DNA of 64,000 nt from contig NZ_CP055156.1 in assembly GCF_014217805.1 (NCBI RefSeq), forward strand, positions 4,408,585-4,472,584, in the 5' to 3' direction. Positions 1 to 24,446 of the stretch are shown here, one piece after another. A program made the position numbers and the translations under genes. Source of the stretch: Adhaeribacter swui. GTDB lineage: Bacteria > Bacteroidota > Bacteroidia > Cytophagales > Hymenobacteraceae. Under the pieces are notes generated by a model, which was given only the letters and a program-made list of their open reading frames with translations, was not told the DNA's origin and ran no database searches. Positions within the stretch are counted from its first letter, which is position 1, and the number at the start of each line of letters is the position of its first letter.

Positions 1-735
1 TGTAAAAGCCATGGTTTCGTCTACCAGCATGGGGCAATCGCAAATCCGGAATTCGATTGTTTCAAAAAAGGGGTGCACCCGTACGTCCCACCAGATCTTC
101 TTGGCGTTATCGATACAATTGGTTTTAACCAGCAGCTTAATGTAGTTATCGTATTCTTCTATGCTTAGAAAATAATCCGGAATGCCCGTGCGCGGAAACT
201 TATCAAATACTTTGGTACGAAACGATTTATAACCCGTATTGCGGCCTTCCCAAAACGGCGAGTTAGTAGAAAGCGCGTAGATGTGCGGTAAAAAGTACCG
301 AACCTGGTTAGCAATATGAATGGCCATTTCGCGCGATTGAAAACCGACGTGCACGTGTAAACCAAAAATTAAATTTGATCGGGCGGCTTCCTGCAATTCA
401 TCCACAATTTCGGCGTAGCGCGGGTGGTCGGTTATGAGTTGGTGCTGCCAATGCGAAAAAGGGTGGGTACCGGCTGCGCCAATCCGAAAGCCTAATTCGC
501 CGGCCAAAGTAGCTACCGTTCTTCGTAATTTGGTAACCTCGGTGCGGGCTTCGGCGGTGTTCTGGCAGATGCTGGTGCCTACTTCTACCACGGCCTGGTG
601 CATTTCGGCTTTTACCTGGTCTTCGTGCACCCGCTGTGCGGCTTCTACAATTTTTTGTTCGTGCGATATTAACTCCCGCGAAACGGGATCAATTACCATA
701 AACTCTTCTTCTACGCCTAAGGTGAATTTATTCAT
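1..735 (-). CDS. YbdK/GCS2-type carboxylate-amine ligase, 3' end cut by window
   Basis: Reading the minus strand from the ATG at 735 gives 245 uninterrupted residues that run off the window edge; the family is usually about 370 residues, so roughly two thirds is present. Visible family marks are GVEEEF at 7-12 (start of the glutamate-cysteine ligase type 2 fold), HVHVG at 127-131, the STNSPFWEGR stretch at 156-165 and WWDVRVHP near 215-222. Known members couple the carboxylate of glutamate (or a similar acid) to an amine using ATP; E. coli YbdK does this weakly with cysteine. The gene lies 263 bases downstream of an ATP-grasp gene on the same strand, suggesting two consecutive amide ligations. 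The true substrate cannot be read from the sequence. Family assignment is firm; pathway is inference. Confidence 0.9.
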   Translation of the reverse strand, partial: MNKFTLGVEEEFMVIDPVSRELISHEQKIVEAAQRVHEDQVKAEMHQAVVEVGTSICQNTAEARTEVTKLRRTVATLAGELGFRIGAAGTHPFSHWQHQLITDHPRYAEIVDELQEAARSNLIFGLHVHVGFQSREMAIHIANQVRYFLPHIYALSTNSPFWEGRNTGYKSFRTKVFDKFPRTGIPDYFLSIEEYDNYIKLLVKTNCIDNAKKIWWDVRVHPFFETIEFRICDCPMLVDETMAFT

Positions 736-998
736 GAGTTTGGTTATGTATAAGTTTTGGCTCGTATGAAGCTATTAATCCCGATTTATTTGACTGATAG
801 GTAAGGTGCTGCTATTCTGTAAAGTCAACCAACGGTAGTAATAAGTAGTTGATAGATTCTTAGAAATTAAGAAATTTAAAAAATTGCTCTTCTGGTTGCT
901 CTTTATTTCGGTGCATACTGAATTTTGATATGCCGCCCGCGGATTCCGGAATTTAATTATAAGTAAGTTATAAAGGCAGCGAATAAACCCAGGACACC
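736..998. other. Intergenic gap between ATP-grasp and YbdK-like genes
   Basis: No gene, clear hairpin or strong TAnnTTTG promoter is seen. It is AT-rich and long enough to hold a separate promoter for the YbdK-like gene, so co-transcription with the ATP-grasp gene is not assured. Confidence 0.5.
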
Positions 999-2015
999 TT
1001 AGGAACTAACTTGGGGTTTTAGGCTGCTTTGGGCCGGAACCTGCGGCGCAACCGCATTTGGTATTAAATCGGTTTTGGAGGCGCCGGATTTTACAAATTG
1101 TCCCCAGGTTAAGTTATCGAGGCCCGGTTTGTGCGCTTTGGCCCGGTTAATGGCGTAAGAAGCTATGGTTTCTACAATCCACTCAAAATTCTCTTCGCCT
1201 ACACTGTTTAAATCGGCATCGGGAGCAGGGTTGCAAAAGTCAATGGCATACGGAATGCCGTCGCGGATGGCAAATTCTACGGTGTTCAAATCGTAACCCA
1301 AATACTGGTTAAGCTTAATAACGTATTCTTTTACTTGTTTTAAGATTTTTTTGGCCGCCGGCGCTTTGCCGTGTTCGTAACGTAAATGGTGCGGATTGCG
1401 GGGTTCGTACTGCATAATGCGCACGTGTTGGCCGCCCACGCAGTAACACCGGAAATAATCTTCAAAAATTATTTCTTCCTGCAGCATCATTACGAGTTGC
1501 CGCGTTTGATTAAACTTATCAAAAAAATCTTCGGGACTGTGCAGTTTGTACACATCGCGCCAGCCGCCCCCGTCAAACGGTTTCATGTAAGCCGGAAAGC
1601 CCACGTATTTAAAAATGCCGTCCCAATCTAAAGGATATTCCAGGTTCCGGAACGAATTGCCGTTGGTATTATCGGGCATATCGCGCGAAGGCAACAATAC
1701 GGTTTTGGGTACCGGTACGCCAATTTTTACGGCTAAGGCATTATTAAAAAATTTTTCGTCGGCGCTCCACCAAAAGGGGTTATTAATTACTGCCGTGCCC
1801 GACATGGCCGCATTTTTTAGCATGGCGCGGTAAAAAGGCACATCCTGCGAAATCCGGTCCACGATTACGTCGTAGCCCGAGGCTTCTCCCTGAATTACTT
1901 TATCTATCAACACAAAGTCGGCCGTTATATTTCTCACCCCTTTTTTATTAATCCGGTCCACGAAAGCTTGCGGAAAGGTGTTTTCCTGACCAAAAAGAAT
2001 TCCGATTTTTTTCAT
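999..2015 (-). CDS. ATP-grasp ligase (glutathione synthase/RimK-like)
   Basis: This 338-residue protein has the order expected for an ATP-grasp amide ligase: a Rossmann-like N-terminus (KKIGILFG), a glycine-rich ATP loop KPFDGGGWRDV at 145-155, the adenine-contact strand LQEEIIFEDYFR at 178-189, and the metal-binding residues in EFAIRDG (near 247) and AIDFCNPAPDAD at 257-268. Such enzymes activate a carboxylate as acyl phosphate and join it to an amine or thiol. The last 40 residues are Pro/Ser/Gln-rich and probably disordered. It starts 17 bases after the upstream esterase stop, so those two are very likely co-transcribed, and a YbdK-type ligase follows. The pairing formally mirrors GshA-GshB of glutathione synthesis, but the substrate is unknown. 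Confidence 0.88.
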   Translation of the reverse strand: MKKIGILFGQENTFPQAFVDRINKKGVRNITADFVLIDKVIQGEASGYDVIVDRISQDVPFYRAMLKNAAMSGTAVINNPFWWSADEKFFNNALAVKIGVPVPKTVLLPSRDMPDNTNGNSFRNLEYPLDWDGIFKYVGFPAYMKPFDGGGWRDVYKLHSPEDFFDKFNQTRQLVMMLQEEIIFEDYFRCYCVGGQHVRIMQYEPRNPHHLRYEHGKAPAAKKILKQVKEYVIKLNQYLGYDLNTVEFAIRDGIPYAIDFCNPAPDADLNSVGEENFEWIVETIASYAINRAKAHKPGLDNLTWGQFVKSGASKTDLIPNAVAPQVPAQSSLKPQVSS

Positions 2016-2032
2016 AATAGATTTTTAAATTT

Positions 2033-2737
2033 TTACAAAGTGGATAAGTAATGCGGGAACATGTCGCGCCATACCGGCCAATCGTGCACGGCATTGGGCC
2101 GGACATCCAGCCAATGCGGAATATTTTTGCGGGACAGAATGCTGCTCAAATTCAAGTTCGCGTCTTTACAAATGTCGTACTCCGAGGTACCCAGAATTAT
2201 TTTTAATTGCCAAATGGCCGGATCTGCACTGTTCGAAACAAAATCTACCGGATTGTTATAATACACATCATCGTTGTAAAAGCCATCCAGTTGTTCCCGG
2301 ATATCAAAAGCGCCGCTCATACTAAACAGGTGGCTGGCTTTATCGGGGTGTTTAAAAGCAAAATTAGCGGCGTGGTAACCGCCAAAGCTACAGCCGGCCA
2401 CGCATACTTTTTCTTTACCGGTTTCGTGCAAAGCCCAGGGCATCAATTCGTGGTACAACATTTGATCGTAGCGCAGGTGGTTTTGTACCCTTTCGGCCGG
2501 GTGCACTGCTTTGTTATACCAGCTAAGCGCATCCACCGAATCGATGCAATAAATTTTTACCAGTCCTTGCTCTATAAACCAGGCAGCACTATCAATTAAT
2601 TTAAAATCTTTGTTTTCGTAATAACGGCCTTTGGACGTAGGGAACAAGATTACCGGGTAACCCTGGTGCCCAAAAACCAGCATTTCGATTTCGGCGTTAA
2701 GTTGCTGCGAATACCATTTATGATACTGCTCGGTCAT
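2033..2737 (-). CDS. Esterase (COG4947-like alpha/beta hydrolase)
   Basis: A 234-residue protein without signal peptide, hence probably cytosolic. It carries a complete serine hydrolase triad: nucleophile elbow GCSFGG at 115-120 (Ser117), a likely acid Asp188 in GTSEYDIC, and His218 in VHDWPVW. It belongs to the esterase-D-like branch that also contains S-formylglutathione hydrolase. It is the first gene of a leftward set with the ATP-grasp gene 17 bases on, and a second esterase gene diverges from it at 2897. The context suggests hydrolysis of an ester or thioester related to the product of the two ligases; that is inference. A TAnnTTTG promoter lies just upstream. Confidence 0.85.
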   Translation of the reverse strand: MTEQYHKWYSQQLNAEIEMLVFGHQGYPVILFPTSKGRYYENKDFKLIDSAAWFIEQGLVKIYCIDSVDALSWYNKAVHPAERVQNHLRYDQMLYHELMPWALHETGKEKVCVAGCSFGGYHAANFAFKHPDKASHLFSMSGAFDIREQLDGFYNDDVYYNNPVDFVSNSADPAIWQLKIILGTSEYDICKDANLNLSSILSRKNIPHWLDVRPNAVHDWPVWRDMFPHYLSTL

Positions 2738-2762
2738 AGCTTAAATATATACTTTTTATTGA

Positions 2763-2770
2763 CAAAAGTA
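2763..2770 (-). promoter_or_regulatory. Bacteroidota -7 promoter element for the 2737 esterase
   Basis: On the minus strand the sequence reads TACTTTTG, a full match to TAnnTTTG, 25 bases upstream of the esterase start. No clear TTG is seen at -33. Confidence 0.55.
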
Positions 2771-2860
2771 TTTTTCTGATAAAGGAATAGGAAAGATTTA
2801 AGTTATTCGGTAATAAAGGATAAAGTACAATTCCATTATACTTATTAAACTTAATTTGGT

Positions 2861-2868
2861 TAATTTTG
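2861..2868 (+). promoter_or_regulatory. Bacteroidota -7 promoter element for the 2897 esterase
   Basis: TAATTTTG matches TAnnTTTG and precedes the ATG at 2897 by 28 bases. With the opposite element at 2763-2770 it forms a divergent promoter pair. Confidence 0.5.
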
Positions 2869-2896
2869 ACTTTTTAGAAATTGCCTGAATTATACC

Positions 2897-3709
2897 ATGT
2901 TTTTTGATTACGCCGAAGCTGAAGTGCGCATTTGTGTGGAAGAATGGACCATTGCGTCGCAAATTTTAAACCGGGAAGTTTCCGGGGTTATTTACCAACC
3001 CGAATACCTGAGCGCTACCGGGCCTTTGCATTTACTTTTATTAAACGACGGGCAAGATTTAGTTACCATGCAGTACGACCGGATCTTAACCCGGACCTTA
3101 CAGCATAAAAATATACAATCGGTACTTACCGTGGGCATTAAAGCCGGTAACCGCCTGCAGGAATACGGCGTATCGGGCCAACCCGATTTTAAAGAACGCG
3201 GCAGCGAAGCGCATCATTACCGGCAGTTTATTGTTCAGGAATTATTGCCTTTTATTCATTCCCACACGAGCCGGGCAGCATTTAGCAGTTATACGATTGC
3301 GGGCTTTTCGCTAGGTGCTTTATCGGCCCTGGATATTGCCTGGCACGAATCAACTATATTCTCCAGAGTAGGGGCTTTTTCCGGTTCGTTTTGGTGGCGC
3401 AGCAAAGAGTATACGCCCAAGAACCCCGATAAACACCGCATTGCGCACCAGGTAATCCGGCAGACAAACGATAAGCCAAATTTAAAATTTTGGTTTCAGG
3501 CCGGCACCCAAGACGAAAAATCAGACCGCAACCAAAACGGCATTATCGATTCCATTGACGATACCACCAGCCTGATTGCAGAACTATACCGGAAAGGCTA
3601 CGAACGGAACACAGAAGTACGGTACGTAGAGCTGCTGGGCGGGCGCCATGATATTACTACTTGGGGTAAAATTATGCCGGAGTTTTTATGCTGGGCTTTC
3701 CGGAATTAA
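2897..3709 (+). CDS. Esterase D-superfamily hydrolase
   Basis: A 270-residue protein of the putative esterase family (PF00756-like, which includes S-formylglutathione hydrolase and enterochelin esterase). The nucleophile elbow is GFSLG at 136-140 (Ser138), the acid is probably Asp206 in GTQDEKSD, and the histidine is His251 in GGRHDITTW. There is no signal peptide. The stretch DRNQNGIIDSIDD near 210-222 looks like a calcium-binding insertion common in these esterases. It diverges from the COG4947-like esterase and shares the intergenic control region, which ties it to the ligase locus. Substrate unknown. Confidence 0.82.
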   Translation: MFFDYAEAEVRICVEEWTIASQILNREVSGVIYQPEYLSATGPLHLLLLNDGQDLVTMQYDRILTRTLQHKNIQSVLTVGIKAGNRLQEYGVSGQPDFKERGSEAHHYRQFIVQELLPFIHSHTSRAAFSSYTIAGFSLGALSALDIAWHESTIFSRVGAFSGSFWWRSKEYTPKNPDKHRIAHQVIRQTNDKPNLKFWFQAGTQDEKSDRNQNGIIDSIDDTTSLIAELYRKGYERNTEVRYVELLGGRHDITTWGKIMPEFLCWAFRN

Positions 3710-8896: not shown

Positions 8897-10297
8897 CTAT
8901 TGTTTATAGCCTAATATTTTTAACATCGAATCGCTATCCTGCTCATCTGCAAACATTTTAGTTTTCAGGTGGCCGTTCTCGTCGCGATCGATGATAACAT
9001 GGCGCGGGGCCGGTATTAAACAGTGTTTAATGCCCCCGTAACCACTCAACGACTCCTGGTAAGCGCCGGTATGGAAGAATCCAATGTATAACGGTTCTTT
9101 CTCCTCGGAAGTTATAGTGGGTAAAAACACCTGGAACGAGTGCGTCTCGGAATTATAATAATCCTGGCTGTCGCAGGTTAAGCCGCCAATTTGCACCCGC
9201 CGGTAACCTTTATTTAAATGGTTAATAGCCAATAAAATATACCGCTGGCTCAAAGCCCATGAATCTGGCAAGTTGGTAATAAACGAGCCATCAATCATGT
9301 ACCACAATTCTTTGTCGTTCTGTAATTTTAAATCCAGAATGGAATAAATATTGGCGCCGCTCTCACCAACGGTAAAAATACCAAACTCAGTAAAAATATT
9401 CGGTTCCGGCACGCCTTCGGCCTGGCAAATACGCTGGATAGTACGCAGAATTTCTTCTACCATGTAGCGGTAGTTGTATTCTGATTGAATGGACGTTTTA
9501 ATCGGGAAACCGCCGCCAATATCAATGCTGTCCAGTTCCGGGCAAACTTTCTTCAGTTCGCAATACTTATGCACGAACCGGCTTAATTCTGACCAGTAAT
9601 ACGAGGTGTCTTTAATGCCGCTGTTTATAAAATAATGCAGCATTTTTAATTCGAATTTTGGATCGTCTTTAATTTTATTTAAATAAAGATCTACCACATC
9701 GTTGTACCGGATGCCCAAACGTGAGGTATAAAATTCAAATTTTGGTTCTTCGTCGGAAGCTACCCGAATACCCAGGCGGCATTTTTCGGTTACGTGCTCT
9801 TTGTAATAATCAATTTCCGAAAGGTTATCCAGAATAGGGGTAACATTGTAAAACCCGTCGTTAATTAACTCGGCGATGTAGCTTTTGTATAGTTCGCGTT
9901 TAAAGCCGTTGCAAATCACGTAACGGTCTTTGGTTAATTTTCCCTTTTCGTACAAAGCCCGGATAATCGGAATATCGTACGAGGACGAAGTTTCGATGTG
10001 AATGTCGTTTTTTAACCCTTCTTCCAGCACAAAAGAAAAGTGCGACGACTTGGTGCAGTAGCAATACGTATAAGTACCTTGGTAATTCAGCTTTTCCATT
10101 GATTCGCGGAACAGCTTTTTGGCCTTCTGAATCTGGGAACTGATTTTGGGTAAATAAGTAAGCTTAAGCGGAGTACCGTATTCTTTAATGATTTCGAGCA
10201 GCGGAATGCCGTTAAAAATCATTTGATCATCTTCTACGTGAAATTCTTCGGTGGGAAAATCAAAAGTTTGGTTTATTAAATCGATGTATTTATCCAT
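8897..10297 (-). CDS. speA: Arginine decarboxylase (PLP fold type III)
   Basis: A 466-residue enzyme of the alanine-racemase-like fold used by biosynthetic arginine decarboxylases; the short form lacking the E. coli insert is usual in Bacteroidota. The PLP lysine is probably Lys83 in YCTKSSHF, the phosphate-binding glycines are IGGGFP at 260-265 and the catalytic CDSQD is at 375-379. It converts arginine to agmatine, the entry to polyamine synthesis. It is divergent from an arginase gene, so two arginine-consuming routes share one intergenic region. No agmatine-processing gene is present in the window. The symbol is by function; bacterial SpeA proteins are longer. Confidence 0.88.
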   Translation of the reverse strand: MDKYIDLINQTFDFPTEEFHVEDDQMIFNGIPLLEIIKEYGTPLKLTYLPKISSQIQKAKKLFRESMEKLNYQGTYTYCYCTKSSHFSFVLEEGLKNDIHIETSSSYDIPIIRALYEKGKLTKDRYVICNGFKRELYKSYIAELINDGFYNVTPILDNLSEIDYYKEHVTEKCRLGIRVASDEEPKFEFYTSRLGIRYNDVVDLYLNKIKDDPKFELKMLHYFINSGIKDTSYYWSELSRFVHKYCELKKVCPELDSIDIGGGFPIKTSIQSEYNYRYMVEEILRTIQRICQAEGVPEPNIFTEFGIFTVGESGANIYSILDLKLQNDKELWYMIDGSFITNLPDSWALSQRYILLAINHLNKGYRRVQIGGLTCDSQDYYNSETHSFQVFLPTITSEEKEPLYIGFFHTGAYQESLSGYGGIKHCLIPAPRHVIIDRDENGHLKTKMFADEQDSDSMLKILGYKQ

Positions 10298-10344
10298 GCT
10301 AGGTTTAACTCTCTGCGGGCGATGTAAAATTGTTTGTATTTTAC

Positions 10345-10352
10345 CATCTTTG
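10345..10352 (+). promoter_or_regulatory. Probable -7 element of the arginase gene
   Basis: CATCTTTG matches TAnnTTTG at seven of eight positions. Transcription would start near 10358, downstream of the first in-frame ATG (10334), which supports the ATG at 10376 as the real start. Confidence 0.45.
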
Positions 10353-10375
10353 CAAAAGATTGTTGTGTTATTGTT

Positions 10376-11338
10376 ATGTTAACTAATAAAAACATAAAAC
10401 TTATTGAGGTACGTTCAGAACTCGGAGCCGGCACGCGGGGAGCGAGCATGGGCATTGATGCGCTGAAAGTGGCCTGCCTGAATAAACAATCAGATTACTT
10501 TAAGCGTTTCATTTCTACGGAAGTTGCTAATTTAAATTACGTACTTTTCGACCGCAATTTATTTCCGTTTGCCAAATACATCGATTCTATTTTAACTGTG
10601 CAAAAAAGCATTGCCTCTACGGTGCAGCAAACCATGGTGCAAGGTATGTTTCCGTTGGTGCTGGCCGGCGACCACTCAAATGCCGCCGGAACTATTGCGG
10701 GCATTAAAGCCGCTAACCGCGATAAAACCCTGGGGGTGGTTTGGATTGATGCGCACGCCGATTGCCATTCGCCATTTACCACGCCATCAGGTAATGTGCA
10801 CGGCATGCCTTTAGGAATTGCTTTAAACGAAGACAACCTCTGCTGCCAGGTAAATAACCCAGACCTCGAAACCTTGTTTTTCTGGAACGTGCTGAAAAGG
10901 GTGGGCGGCGAAGGCCCCAAGTTAAAACACGAACACTTAGTGTACGTAATGGTGCGCTCTACCGAAGAACCGGAAAATACGTTAATGCAGCAACACGGGA
11001 TTAAAAACTACAAATACGCAGAGTTTAACGAAAAAGGCCCGCAACAAGTAGGGCAGGAGGTGCTGGAGCGTTTAAAAGATTGCGATATCATTTACGTATC
11101 TTTCGACGTGGATAGCTTAGATCCAAAATTTTCGCGGGGAACGGGTACGCCGGTAGCTATTGGTTTGTCGGTTACCCAGGCTCAGGAGCTATGTTATACT
11201 TTATGCCTCAGTCCTAAAGTATGTTGTTTTGAAATGGTAGAAATTAACCCCATGCTGGATATTAAAAATACCATGGCCAAAAATGCCTTTCGTATTCTGG
11301 AACTTGCCACCGAAGCTATTTTAAGCCGGACAGGCTAA
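10376..11338 (+). CDS. rocF: Arginase/ureohydrolase
   Basis: A 320-residue ureohydrolase from the ATG at 10376; an upstream in-frame ATG at 10334 would add 14 residues unlike the family and precede the promoter. Manganese ligands are visible: GDHS (98-101, His100), DAHAD (125-129) and DVDSLDP (244-250). The GNVHGMPL stretch (139-146) is of arginase rather than agmatinase type. The enzyme would hydrolyse arginine to ornithine and urea. Its divergence from arginine decarboxylase, and argS 190 bases downstream, make this an arginine-centred neighbourhood. Formiminoglutamase or agmatinase activity is less likely but not excluded. Confidence 0.85.
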   Translation: MLTNKNIKLIEVRSELGAGTRGASMGIDALKVACLNKQSDYFKRFISTEVANLNYVLFDRNLFPFAKYIDSILTVQKSIASTVQQTMVQGMFPLVLAGDHSNAAGTIAGIKAANRDKTLGVVWIDAHADCHSPFTTPSGNVHGMPLGIALNEDNLCCQVNNPDLETLFFWNVLKRVGGEGPKLKHEHLVYVMVRSTEEPENTLMQQHGIKNYKYAEFNEKGPQQVGQEVLERLKDCDIIYVSFDVDSLDPKFSRGTGTPVAIGLSVTQAQELCYTLCLSPKVCCFEMVEINPMLDIKNTMAKNAFRILELATEAILSRTG

Positions 11339-13516: not shown

Positions 13517-14125
13517 ATGAAATACCTGGGTATACTTCTGTTATTATGGCTGCCATTTGCTTGTCAGCAGTCTACTAAGGCCAAAGAACAATCTACTCCA
13601 CCCGAAACAACCGTTATGGAAACAACAACAGAACACGTAGAAGGAAACAAACCTTCGGTTTATGATTTTAGATTTAAAACTCTGGATGGTTCAGAAATTA
13701 ACCTGAACGAGTTTAAAGGCCGCAAAATGCTGCTGGTAAACGTGGCCTCGGAGTGTGGTTTTACGCCGCAGTATAAAGAACTGCAGCAACTTTACGACCA
13801 GTACGGCACCAAGGTAGTGGTAATTGGTTTCCCGGCTAACGATTTTGGCGGTCAGGAACCCGGCTCTAATCAGGAAATTGCGGCATTTTGCGAAAAGAAC
13901 TATGGCGTTACTTTTCCGGTAGTAGAAAAAATTGCAGTAACTGGCCCGGAACAGCATCCTTTGTACAAGTACTTATCCAGCAAATCTTTAAACGGCATAA
14001 CCGACGAGGCACCTACCTGGAACTTCTGCAAATATTTAATTAACGAAGACGGCAAAGTAGTGCAGTTTTTCTCATCGAAAGTAGCGCCTATGAGCGAAGA
14101 AATAATCGCGGCTATTCAAAAATAA
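13517..14125 (+). CDS. Lipoprotein glutathione peroxidase (Cys type)
   Basis: A 202-residue protein: lipoprotein signal with lipobox LPFAC (Cys16), a Thr/Glu-rich linker to about 45, then a complete GPx domain. The catalytic tetrad is visible as Cys80 in VNVASECGFT, Gln113 in FGGQEPG and Trp168-Asn169 in TWNFCKYL. Cysteine replaces selenocysteine; Cys125 in AAFCEKNYG is placed like the resolving cysteine of thioredoxin-dependent GPx. It should reduce peroxides at the cell envelope. Most bacterial GPx proteins are cytosolic, so the lipid anchor is notable. menA follows 13 bases later and is probably co-transcribed. Confidence 0.9.
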   Translation: MKYLGILLLLWLPFACQQSTKAKEQSTPPETTVMETTTEHVEGNKPSVYDFRFKTLDGSEINLNEFKGRKMLLVNVASECGFTPQYKELQQLYDQYGTKVVVIGFPANDFGGQEPGSNQEIAAFCEKNYGVTFPVVEKIAVTGPEQHPLYKYLSSKSLNGITDEAPTWNFCKYLINEDGKVVQFFSSKVAPMSEEIIAAIQK

Positions 14126-23225: not shown

Positions 23226-24446
23226 TTGGCAAACTTAGAGAAATTCGCTTCTTTTAATGGGAGTAAAAATACCCGCGTGCAAGTAATAAAACACCACGGC
23301 AATGTAAATGCGGTGCTGCAAGGTTTAGGCTGGAACTGGGTAACCGAGGAAGGCTGCGCAAATTATTTGCCCGACGAAGCAGTTCTTTTGCCCGAAAAAG
23401 AGGCGGATGCTTTATTAAATGCCGCTACTCAGCTATACGACCTGATGGTGGCCGCCGTGCCCGACGATTTACCCGCTGATTTCTTGCAAATATTAGATAT
23501 TCCGGAAAACCTGTGGCCCATAATCCGGCAGTCCTGGAACGATGACCGGCACTGGCATTTATATGGCCGGTTTGATTTGGTGCAAACTCCTGAAGGGCCC
23601 AAGCTTTTAGAATTTAATGCCGATACCGCTACTTCTATTCCGGAAACCGCCGTGGTGCAATGGGCTAGTTTGGCAGCGGCGGGTAAAAACGAGGCGGCCC
23701 AAGCCTCGGGCTTGTACGAAGCCTTGGTGGAGCAACTAGCCAACTGGCGTTCCCGGAACGACGACTTAGCCCCGAATTTAGTATTAACCTACATTGGCGA
23801 AAGCACCGAAGACCGTACCAACTGCGAAGTTATTGCCCAGGCGGCCCGCGAAGCCGGCTTCGAAGCCTTCTTATTTCCGATTGATGAATTAACTTTTTCT
23901 ACCGAGGGAGCAGACCGGGGCGTTTGGGGCGAAGTGGGGAAGGATGAATGGCTTGAGTTTCCGTTTGTATTTAAATTACTGCCCTGGGAGCAGATTGCTT
24001 GGGAAGAACCGGAACTCGCCGAGGACTTAGCCAGTCTGATGCTTACCCGCAATGTGGTGGTAGCTAATCCGCCGTATACCTTAATCTGGCAAAGCAAAGG
24101 TTTTCTGGCCTGGCTCTGGAAAGCCTACCCGCATCACCCGCTTTTACTAGAAACAGCCTTAGAGCCTATTCCGGGCAAATACATTCGTAAGCCTTTTTTC
24201 GGTCGCGAAGGGCAAAACGTGCAGGTAGTAGATCAAAAAATTGTGGACGAAAAAGAAGGGGAGTACGCCAATCAAAAGTTTGTTTACCAAGCCTGGGTAG
24301 ATTTACCCCAAGACGACCAAGGTAATTTGTACCAGGCCGGCGTATTTTGGGCTGGCGAAGGTTGCGCCATTGGCCTGCGCCGGGAAAAAGGCATTATCAC
24401 GAACTTGTCGCAGTTTTTGCCGCACCTGTTGGATATAAATCGGTAA
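23226..24446 (+). CDS. Glutathionylspermidine synthase-family ATP-grasp protein (YgiC-like)
   Basis: A 406-residue protein of the GspS C-terminal domain family. Family traits are WNDDRHWHLYGRFDLV, LLEFNADTATSIPE (ligand-binding region near 135-148), VFKLLPWE and the ATP-grasp lysine region KYIRKPFFGREGQNV. There is no amidase domain and no signal peptide, like E. coli YgiC and YjfC, which lack true glutathionylspermidine synthase activity in reports on the family. The start appears to be TTG at 23226, since no ATG precedes the first conserved residues. The lipoprotein gene lies 108 bases upstream and is the likely functional partner. Confidence 0.83.
   Translation: MANLEKFASFNGSKNTRVQVIKHHGNVNAVLQGLGWNWVTEEGCANYLPDEAVLLPEKEADALLNAATQLYDLMVAAVPDDLPADFLQILDIPENLWPIIRQSWNDDRHWHLYGRFDLVQTPEGPKLLEFNADTATSIPETAVVQWASLAAAGKNEAAQASGLYEALVEQLANWRSRNDDLAPNLVLTYIGESTEDRTNCEVIAQAAREAGFEAFLFPIDELTFSTEGADRGVWGEVGKDEWLEFPFVFKLLPWEQIAWEEPELAEDLASLMLTRNVVVANPPYTLIWQSKGFLAWLWKAYPHHPLLLETALEPIPGKYIRKPFFGREGQNVQVVDQKIVDEKEGEYANQKFVYQAWVDLPQDDQGNLYQAGVFWAGEGCAIGLRREKGIITNLSQFLPHLLDINR

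What the first reader, a model, noticed from the sequence alone, without database searches (positions are those of the whole stretch)
1..3709. Two amide ligases with two esterase-D-like hydrolases: candidate small-molecule pathway
Seen: a YbdK/GCS2-type ligase, an ATP-grasp ligase with intact ATP and metal residues, and two serine hydrolases with intact triads, one co-directional (17-base gap) and one divergent. Known: GCS2 and ATP-grasp enzymes perform the two steps of glutathione synthesis, comparative work on amidoligases has noted such combinations in bacteria, and S-formylglutathione hydrolase is an esterase-D-family enzyme. Inference: the locus could make a glutathione-like peptide or thiol, or a capped amino acid, with its own hydrolases. 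A Cys-type glutathione peroxidase and a GspS-like protein lie within the same window, which makes a thiol connection attractive but unproved.
Basis: partly seen in the sequence, partly recalled or inferred. Interest (0 to 1): 0.65.

Follow-up and report, generated by a model that had tools for sequence, protein, structure and literature searches.

The report
Phylum-wide three-ligase small-molecule pathway
The four genes are the visible part of an uncharacterised six-gene set, conserved across the Bacteroidota phylum including green sulfur bacteria, whose three amide-forming enzymes probably build a small peptide-like or peptide-amine compound that nobody has identified.

Summary
Left of window position 1 the gene run continues with a class I glutamine amidotransferase (GAT) and a second ATP-grasp ligase (Grasp2). 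Gene order is EstB< | EstA> Grasp1> GCS2> GAT> Grasp2>. It recurs in 80 named Bacteroidota/Ignavibacteria loci, always in the expected orientation. In 395 sampled genomes of the phylum, 127 have Grasp1 and 110 of these have Grasp2, against 4 of 268 without Grasp1. Of the 17 exceptions, at least 14 carry a different glutathionylspermidine-synthase-like ligase (G2p) beside Grasp1. Partners co-occur even on separate contigs. Twenty-seven Grasp1-negative genomes have no GCS2, GAT or Grasp2. This is therefore one pathway, not a chance neighbourhood. Folds: Grasp1 is D-Ala-D-Ala-ligase/LysX/RimK-like; Grasp2 is full-length glutathionylspermidine synthetase/YgiC/YjfC-like. Best reading: stepwise synthesis of a small peptide-amine or amidated peptide by the same ligase logic as glutathione to glutathionylspermidine. 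A thiol product is not supported: the bacillithiol gene bshC is in 78 of 80 genomes whether or not the pathway is present, the ligase is not GshA by curated cut-offs, and neither hydrolase is S-formylglutathione hydrolase. The product and all substrates remain unknown.

The parts
2897..3709 (+). EstB, divergent alpha/beta hydrolase of the 'Putative esterase' family (270 aa)
   Evidence: PF00756 106 bits; divergent partner in 72 of 80 named loci; triad Ser138/Asp206/His251 in 73/73
2033..2737 (-). EstA, alpha/beta hydrolase (234 aa), first gene of the co-directional run
   Evidence: PF00756 34 bits; upstream of Grasp1 in 48/48 loci where both were scored; homologues outside the phylum sit next to other ATP-grasp ligases
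999..2015 (-). Grasp1, ATP-grasp ligase (338 aa), the constant member of the set
   Evidence: No Pfam or NCBIfam family above cut-off; AlphaFold model pLDDT 89; nearest folds ArgX/LysX, D-Ala-D-Ala ligase and RimK
1..735 (-). GCS2 carboxylate-amine ligase, N-terminal 245 of 367 aa; the gene continues left of the window to window coordinate -368 (L002:11717-12820)
   Evidence: PF04107 208 bits; NCBIfam PRK13515 542 bits against cut-off 371; nearest solved structure E. coli YbdK 1r8g, E 1.3e-57
1..1 (-). OUTSIDE the window, to its left: class I glutamine amidotransferase-like protein GAT (286 aa, TTG start; window coordinates -1437 to -577; L002:10648-11508)
   Evidence: PF00117 38 bits against cut-off 22.8; Cys116, His219, Glu221 and the SGGPG loop invariant in 26/26
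1..1 (-). OUTSIDE the window, to its left: Grasp2, second ATP-grasp ligase of glutathionylspermidine-synthetase fold (395 aa; window coordinates -2621 to -1434; L002:9464-10651); its ATG overlaps the GAT stop by 4 bases (ATGA)
   Evidence: model pLDDT 89; Z 25 to YjfC/YgiC/GspS over 338-344 residues

Best explanation
The locus encodes a cytosolic pathway, independent of nonribosomal peptide synthetases, that joins small building blocks by successive ATP-driven amide bonds. SHOWN: one pathway by conserved order and by co-occurrence even when unlinked; three ligases with the folds and active-site residues of acyl-phosphate-forming amide ligases; a GAT and two hydrolases with intact catalytic residues. 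INFERRED: GCS2 activates a carboxylate, most likely the gamma-carboxylate of glutamate, and joins it to an amine; Grasp1 (LysX/D-Ala-D-Ala-ligase-like) adds or joins an amino acid; Grasp2, or G2p in other lineages, condenses the peptide carboxylate with an amine (a polyamine, as in glutathionylspermidine synthetase and YgiC/YjfC) or with ammonia that GAT releases from glutamine. EstA and EstB trim, hydrolyse or edit the product. The ligase series matches glutathione to glutathionylspermidine by type (GCS ligase, ATP-grasp, GspS-type ATP-grasp), but the product is unlikely to be a thiol.
For: Conserved order in 29/29 and 80 loci. Grasp1 and Grasp2: both 110, Grasp1 only 17, Grasp2 only 4, neither 264 of 395 genomes. 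In an 80-genome panel all 46 full-strength Grasp1 genomes carry Grasp2 (35) or G2p (11) with no overlap found, and 27 Grasp1-negative genomes carry no GCS2, GAT or Grasp2 apart from matches weaker than 1e-4. Partners are unlinked in 15 of 37 (GCS2), 9 of 30 (GAT) and 18 of 35 (Grasp2) genomes yet still co-occur. Grasp2 fold matches YjfC, YgiC, GspS, trypanothione and eukaryotic glutathione synthetases at Z 22-26; YgiC/YjfC are peptide-spermidine ligases (Pederick et al. 2023, cited in PMC12568646). Grasp1 fold.
Against: No substrate or product is known. GCS2 is absent in 9 and GAT in 16 of 46 pathway genomes, so neither step is obligatory or other enzymes replace it. Grasp2 has an invariant Gln where the GspS/GSS metal-binding motif (recalled as E-x-N) has Asn, and Grasp1 has D-x-x-N instead of E-x-N; activity is therefore not certain. 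No polyamine gene recurs in the neighbourhoods. The co-occurrence statistic was not corrected for phylogeny.
Confidence: 0.6

Rival explanations
1. A glutathione-like low-molecular-weight thiol is made, and the esterases recycle its adducts.
For: GCS2 and ATP-grasp are the two enzyme types of glutathione synthesis; a glutathione peroxidase family gene (13517-14125) and a PF03738 gene (23226-24446) lie in the window.
Against: bshC in 78/80 genomes with and without the pathway, including this genome; GCS2 fails gshA and EgtA cut-offs; EstB fails the S-formylglutathione hydrolase cut-off and EstA does not match it. Green sulfur bacteria with FMO genes (G384, G227) carry Grasp1 and Grasp2, yet thiol profiling of Chlorobaculum tepidum found N-methyl-bacillithiol as the novel thiol and no glutathione (PMC6282198).
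Confidence: 0.1
2. Grasp2 with GAT is an amidotransferase: GAT frees ammonia from glutamine and Grasp2 caps the peptide as an amide (as in glutathione amide or carbamoyl-phosphate synthetase logic).
For: GAT and Grasp2 overlap by four bases here and are co-directional neighbours in 45/45 loci where both were scored; the GAT Cys/His/Glu triad and SGGPG loop are invariant.
Against: 16 of 46 pathway genomes have no GAT of this family; Grasp2 is structurally an amine ligase rather than a CPS-type enzyme.
Confidence: 0.3
3. GAT is a gamma-glutamyl hydrolase (PuuD or plant gamma-glutamyl peptidase type) that removes a glutamyl group placed by GCS2, so the set is a protection-deprotection or amine-utilisation pathway.
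For: GCS2 and a class I GAT together recall the PuuA/PuuD logic (own knowledge). PMC2588565 notes a GCS2-sized ligase next to a GAT-like thiol peptidase in proteobacteria.
Against: 9 of 46 genomes have GAT but no GCS2 and 16 have GCS2 but no GAT; no oxidase, transaminase or transporter recurs beside the set.
Confidence: 0.2
4. The ligases modify a protein (RimK-like tailing or peptide tagging) instead of making a free metabolite.
For: RimK and LysX/ArgX, which act on proteins or carrier proteins, are among the Grasp1 fold neighbours.
Against: No small conserved substrate protein recurs in the neighbourhoods at the 80-aa gene-calling limit; Grasp2 and GCS2 relatives act on small molecules; RimK subfamily cut-off not met (36 against 143 bits).
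Confidence: 0.12
5. Standard gshA/gshB with unrelated neighbours; the linkage is accidental.
For: Gene order can be conserved among close relatives for no functional reason.
Against: Conserved across families and classes, and co-occurring when unlinked; gshA cut-off not met.
Confidence: 0.02

Closest known systems
Glutathione to glutathionylspermidine pathway (GshA, GshB, GspS)
   Same: Same ordered set of enzyme types: a GCS ligase, an ATP-grasp ligase, and a GspS-fold ATP-grasp ligase.
   Different: GCS2 is a YbdK-type ligase below gshA cut-offs; Grasp1 matches no GshB family; Grasp2 misses PF03738, lacks an amidase domain and has Q for N in the metal motif; extra GAT and two hydrolases; bacillithiol, not glutathione, is the likely thiol of the host.
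E. coli YgiC/YjfC peptide-spermidine ligases
   Same: Closest solved folds to Grasp2, Z 25-26 over about 340 residues.
   Different: 13-14% identity; the window's own PF03738 protein (23226-24446) is the sequence-level relative and is a separate gene without significant BLAST similarity to Grasp2.
LysX/ArgX, RimK and D-Ala-D-Ala ligases
   Same: ATP-grasp fold of Grasp1 (Z 12-15 over about 180-200 residues, residues 81-300).
   Different: Below every curated family cut-off; D-x-x-N instead of E-x-N metal motif; no LysW-like carrier protein seen.
E. coli YbdK
   Same: Same GCS2 subfamily (TIGR02050 302 bits against 176) and nearest solved structure.
   Different: YbdK is not next to any ATP-grasp gene in K-12; this one is part of a conserved three-ligase set.
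NRPS-independent amide-ligase pathways such as E-64 (Cp1B/Cp1D) and dapdiamide (PMC12568646)
   Same: Sequential stand-alone ligases build an acid-amino acid-amine compound; Cp1B (9cjn) shares the Grasp2 fold, Z 22.7.
   Different: Those are fungal or sporadic secondary metabolites; this set is distributed across a whole phylum.
Amidoligase gene neighbourhoods predicted by Iyer, Aravind and colleagues (2009)
   Same: Operons combining several ATP-grasp and GCS-type ligases were described in general there (own knowledge; PMC4431377, restates the principle).
   Different: The 2009 paper could not be read here, so whether this exact set was listed is not known.

Membership tests
GCS2 / YbdK carboxylate-amine ligases | Profile above curated cut-off (PF04107; TIGR02050; PRK13515) | tested here: met
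   208 vs 21; 302 vs 176; 542 vs 371 bits
GCS2 / YbdK carboxylate-amine ligases | GhExE ATP/Mg motif | tested here: met
   G7-V-E9-E-E11; G, E and E in 81 of 82 (one gap)
Glutamate-cysteine ligase of glutathione synthesis (gshA equivalogs) | gshA_cyano TIGR02048 or EgtA TIGR03444 above cut-off | tested here: not met
   69 vs 249 and 12 vs 371 bits
Glutathione-like thiol pathway | Cysteine as substrate, thiol product | not testable with these tools
   Indirect evidence against: bshC in 78/80 genomes regardless of the pathway
Glutathionylspermidine synthase family PF03738 | Pfam match above cut-off by Grasp2 | tested here: not met
   No PF03738 match at E <= 1
Glutathionylspermidine synthetase / YgiC / glutathione synthetase fold | Full-length fold match of Grasp2 | tested here: met
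   Z 22-26 over 312-369 residues to GspS, YgiC, YjfC, GSS and trypanothione synthetase
Glutathionylspermidine synthetase / YgiC / glutathione synthetase fold | Polyamine or amine as acceptor | not testable with these tools
   No assay or ligand model
RimK/LysX family (TIGR00768, TIGR02144) | Profile above cut-off by Grasp1 | tested here: not met
   36 vs 143 and 24 vs 276 bits
R2K clade of ATP-grasp (PF18299, PF14243) | Profile above cut-off; two lysines in the RAGNYA domain in place of the linker lysine (PMC4431377) | tested here: not met
   14.6 vs 26.2 and 12.8 vs 26.3 bits; a linker-region lysine (Lys88) is kept in 42/49
Class I glutamine amidotransferases PF00117 | Profile above cut-off and Cys-His-Glu triad | tested here: met
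   38.2 vs 22.8 bits; triad 26/26
Class I glutamine amidotransferases PF00117 | Glutamine hydrolysis coupled to a synthetase | not testable with these tools
   Adjacency to Grasp2 only
S-formylglutathione hydrolase (TIGR02821) | Profile above cut-off by EstA or EstB | tested here: not met
   EstB 15 vs 282 bits; EstA no match at E <= 1
'Putative esterase' PF00756 | Profile above cut-off and Ser-Asp-His triad | tested here: met
   EstB 106, EstA 34 vs 22 bits; triads conserved

The most novel reading that the evidence does not exclude
A previously unknown core metabolite of Bacteroidota, Ignavibacteria and green sulfur bacteria: a non-thiol counterpart of glutathionylspermidine, a glutamyl peptide joined to a polyamine or amidated, made by three dedicated ligases, with Grasp2 replaced by the different ligase G2p in one set of lineages.
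Probability: 0.25. Interest if true: 0.85.

Novelty: new variant of a known kind. Interest (0 to 1): 0.6.

Why it matters
About a third of sampled genomes in a major bacterial phylum (127 of 395) carry this ligase set, it reaches 2-3 Mb green sulfur bacterial genomes where the genes are scattered but kept together, and no product is known. If it makes one compound, a widespread metabolite and its enzymology have been overlooked. The set is small enough to test directly with purified enzymes or a single deletion plus metabolomics.

Tried and rejected
Glutathione synthesis by gshA/gshB: GCS2 fails gshA cut-offs. Thiol by association: bshC does not track the pathway. S-formylglutathione hydrolase: not met. 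R2K clade for Grasp1: below cut-offs, linker-region lysine kept. Apparent further partner c5 (26 loci): its sequence looks like the translation GTPase TypA/BipA, and c5 occurs only in Mucilaginibacter/Pedobacter-type and a few related loci, so a lineage-local neighbour. Chitinophagaceae first looked as if they lacked GAT and Grasp2; whole-genome search showed unlinked partners in several genomes whose only linked partner is GCS2 (for example G274, G298). Divergent Grasp1 matches (31-42% identity; G308, G535, G434, G516, G504, G156, G235) have no partners and are treated as paralogues. Plasmid search for Grasp1: none. Searching a phylum centred on E. coli was not possible, so presence outside the phylum is open. 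Iyer et al. 2009 is not held. The window's PF03738 protein is not the same family as Grasp2 by BLAST (E 0.04). hhalign of Grasp2 against G2p gave E 0.004 but probability 9%: inconclusive.
Full report
OBSERVATION. The GCS2 ligase is cut by position 1. Reading the same contig to the left (locus L002; window position 1 = L002 12086) completes it to 367 aa and adds two co-directional genes: a class I glutamine amidotransferase-like protein (GAT, 286 aa) and a second ATP-grasp ligase (Grasp2, 395 aa). The Grasp2 start overlaps the GAT stop in an ATGA. Spacing is not uniformly tight: EstA-Grasp1 17 bases and GAT-Grasp2 overlapping, but 263 bases between Grasp1 and GCS2 and 208 between GCS2 and GAT. 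A single transcript is therefore not established. A search of this genome found one GCS2-family gene.

CONSERVATION OF ORDER. Grasp1 is found in 46 of 150 genomes of the same family, patchily, with negatives in the same genus. All 29 loci examined there carry EstB (divergent), EstA, Grasp1 and GCS2. A scan of named genomes gave 80 loci, largely Mucilaginibacter, Pedobacter, Chitinophagaceae, Cytophagales and Ignavibacteria. Over these, GCS2 is nearby in 78, EstB in 72, EstA in 48, GAT in 47 and Grasp2 in 46, with every pair in the expected orientation. The next most frequent neighbour occurs in 26 of 81 loci and is lineage-local. Most Chitinophagaceae loci have only EstB, Grasp1 and GCS2 together; EstB was not detected in the three Ignavibacteria loci.

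VARIANTS. In 14 loci of more distant classes, Grasp1 is followed by a different 455-aa ligase (G2p) and then GAT, without linked GCS2 and usually with EstA upstream (in L184 no GAT is in the stretch, and EstA was not detected in four of them). G2p matches a putative glutathionylspermidine synthase, 3n6x (E 3.7e-9). In 14 other pathway genomes of the panel (distant lineages with GCS2 but no GAT), Grasp2 or GCS2 or both lie away from Grasp1 in most cases.

CO-OCCURRENCE. In an 80-genome panel (53 with and 27 without Grasp1) GCS2, GAT and Grasp2 were searched genome-wide, and G2p in 73 genomes. None of the 27 negatives has any of GCS2, GAT or Grasp2; their only matches are weaker than 1e-4. Seven positives are divergent Grasp1 paralogues and also have none. 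The remaining 46 have Grasp2 (35) or G2p (11); no genome searched for both has both at full strength. GCS2 is present in 37 and GAT in 30; none lacks both. GCS2 is unlinked from Grasp1 in 15 genomes, GAT in 9 and Grasp2 in 18. In the wider sample of 395 genomes the 2x2 table is 110 both, 17 Grasp1 only, 4 Grasp2 only, 264 neither (Fisher p 2e-73, not corrected for phylogeny). Of the 17, 14 were shown to have G2p; G252, G271 and G528 were not tested. Persistence of the partnership across contigs is the strongest evidence that these genes serve one pathway.

WHO CARRIES IT. Two Grasp1/Grasp2 genomes without names (G384, G227) encode the FMO antenna protein and so are green sulfur bacteria; G384 also has GCS2, on a third contig. 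Named carriers are listed. Presence outside the phylum could not be surveyed; Grasp1 is not found on plasmids. EstA homologues on plasmids of Peptoclostridium, Pararhizobium and Sinorhizobium sit directly downstream of a different ATP-grasp ligase; in two other plasmid loci examined (Rhizobium lusitanum, Thiodictyon) they do not. EstA-type hydrolases thus repeatedly accompany ATP-grasp ligases.

ENZYMES. GCS2: YbdK-type carboxylate-amine ligase, motif intact. Grasp1: no curated family; model pLDDT 89; nearest folds ArgX/LysX, D-Ala-D-Ala ligase and RimK; Lys145, Glu247, Asp259 and Asn262 conserved in 45-46 of 49, with D-x-x-N in place of the usual E-x-N (the metal role is inferred from the motif). 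Grasp2: model pLDDT 89; full-length match to YjfC, YgiC, GspS and glutathione synthetases, Z 22-26; D95, E112, Q114, K298, E348 and R350 invariant, with Gln where GspS and GSS have Asn (from memory). GAT: triad and SGGPG loop invariant. EstA and EstB: triads conserved; identity as S-formylglutathione hydrolase not met.

MECHANISM. All three ligases belong to folds whose known members phosphorylate a carboxylate and transfer it to an amine (established for GCS2, D-Ala-D-Ala ligase/LysX and GspS/GSS). The simplest reading is stepwise assembly of a small peptide-like acid by GCS2 and Grasp1, closed by Grasp2 or G2p with an amine. YgiC and YjfC, the nearest folds of Grasp2, are peptide-spermidine ligases (Pederick et al. 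2023, cited in PMC12568646), which favours a polyamine or similar acceptor. GAT beside Grasp2 favours ammonia. These two options are not separated by the data. The roles of EstA and EstB are open; being hydrolases they may trim, edit or degrade the product.

AGAINST A THIOL. bshC, a bacillithiol gene, is present in 78 of 80 genomes with or without the pathway. Thiol profiling of Chlorobaculum tepidum found N-methyl-bacillithiol and no glutathione (PMC6282198); that this very strain carries Grasp1 was not checked. The window's glutathione peroxidase and PF03738 genes are not part of the conserved set.

NOVELTY AND SCORE. The enzyme types are known and multi-ligase operons have been predicted in general. 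The phylum-wide, partly unlinked, three-ligase set with alternative third ligases was not found described in the papers that could be searched, but the key 2009 paper could not be read. Filed as a new variant of a known kind, interest 0.6.

Noticed in passing
window 23226-24446 (+): A PF03738 glutathionylspermidine synthase family protein (304 bits), the sequence-level YgiC/YjfC relative in this genome, separate from Grasp2; its own neighbourhood and partners were not examined.
   Followed up: partly
window 8897-10297 (-) and 10334-11338 (+): A SpeA-like decarboxylase (below the speA cut-off) beside an arginase-family protein, about 5 kb from EstB: possible polyamine metabolism near a predicted amine ligase, but not a conserved neighbour.
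   Followed up: partly
L209, L212, L213 (plasmids of Peptoclostridium, Pararhizobium, Sinorhizobium): EstA homologues directly downstream of a different ATP-grasp ligase of about 389 aa: a recurrent ATP-grasp/hydrolase pair outside Bacteroidota.
   Followed up: partly
L214, Selenomonas ruminantium plasmid pSRC2: A cluster with a glutamate-cysteine-ligase family protein, a MATE exporter, a G2p-like ligase, a hydrolase and an NlpC/P60 protein: looks like an exported amide-ligase product.
   Followed up: no
loci L198, L200, L201 (genomes G162, G183, G279): An additional ATP-grasp-like protein of about 390 aa lies beyond GAT in the G2p-type version of the set in L200, and ORFs of similar size lie near the same end in L198 and L201.
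   Followed up: no
L191-L197 (genomes G308, G535, G434, G516, G504, G156, G235): Divergent Grasp1 homologues (31-42% identity) without any of the partner genes; probably a paralogous ligase family with another role.
   Followed up: partly
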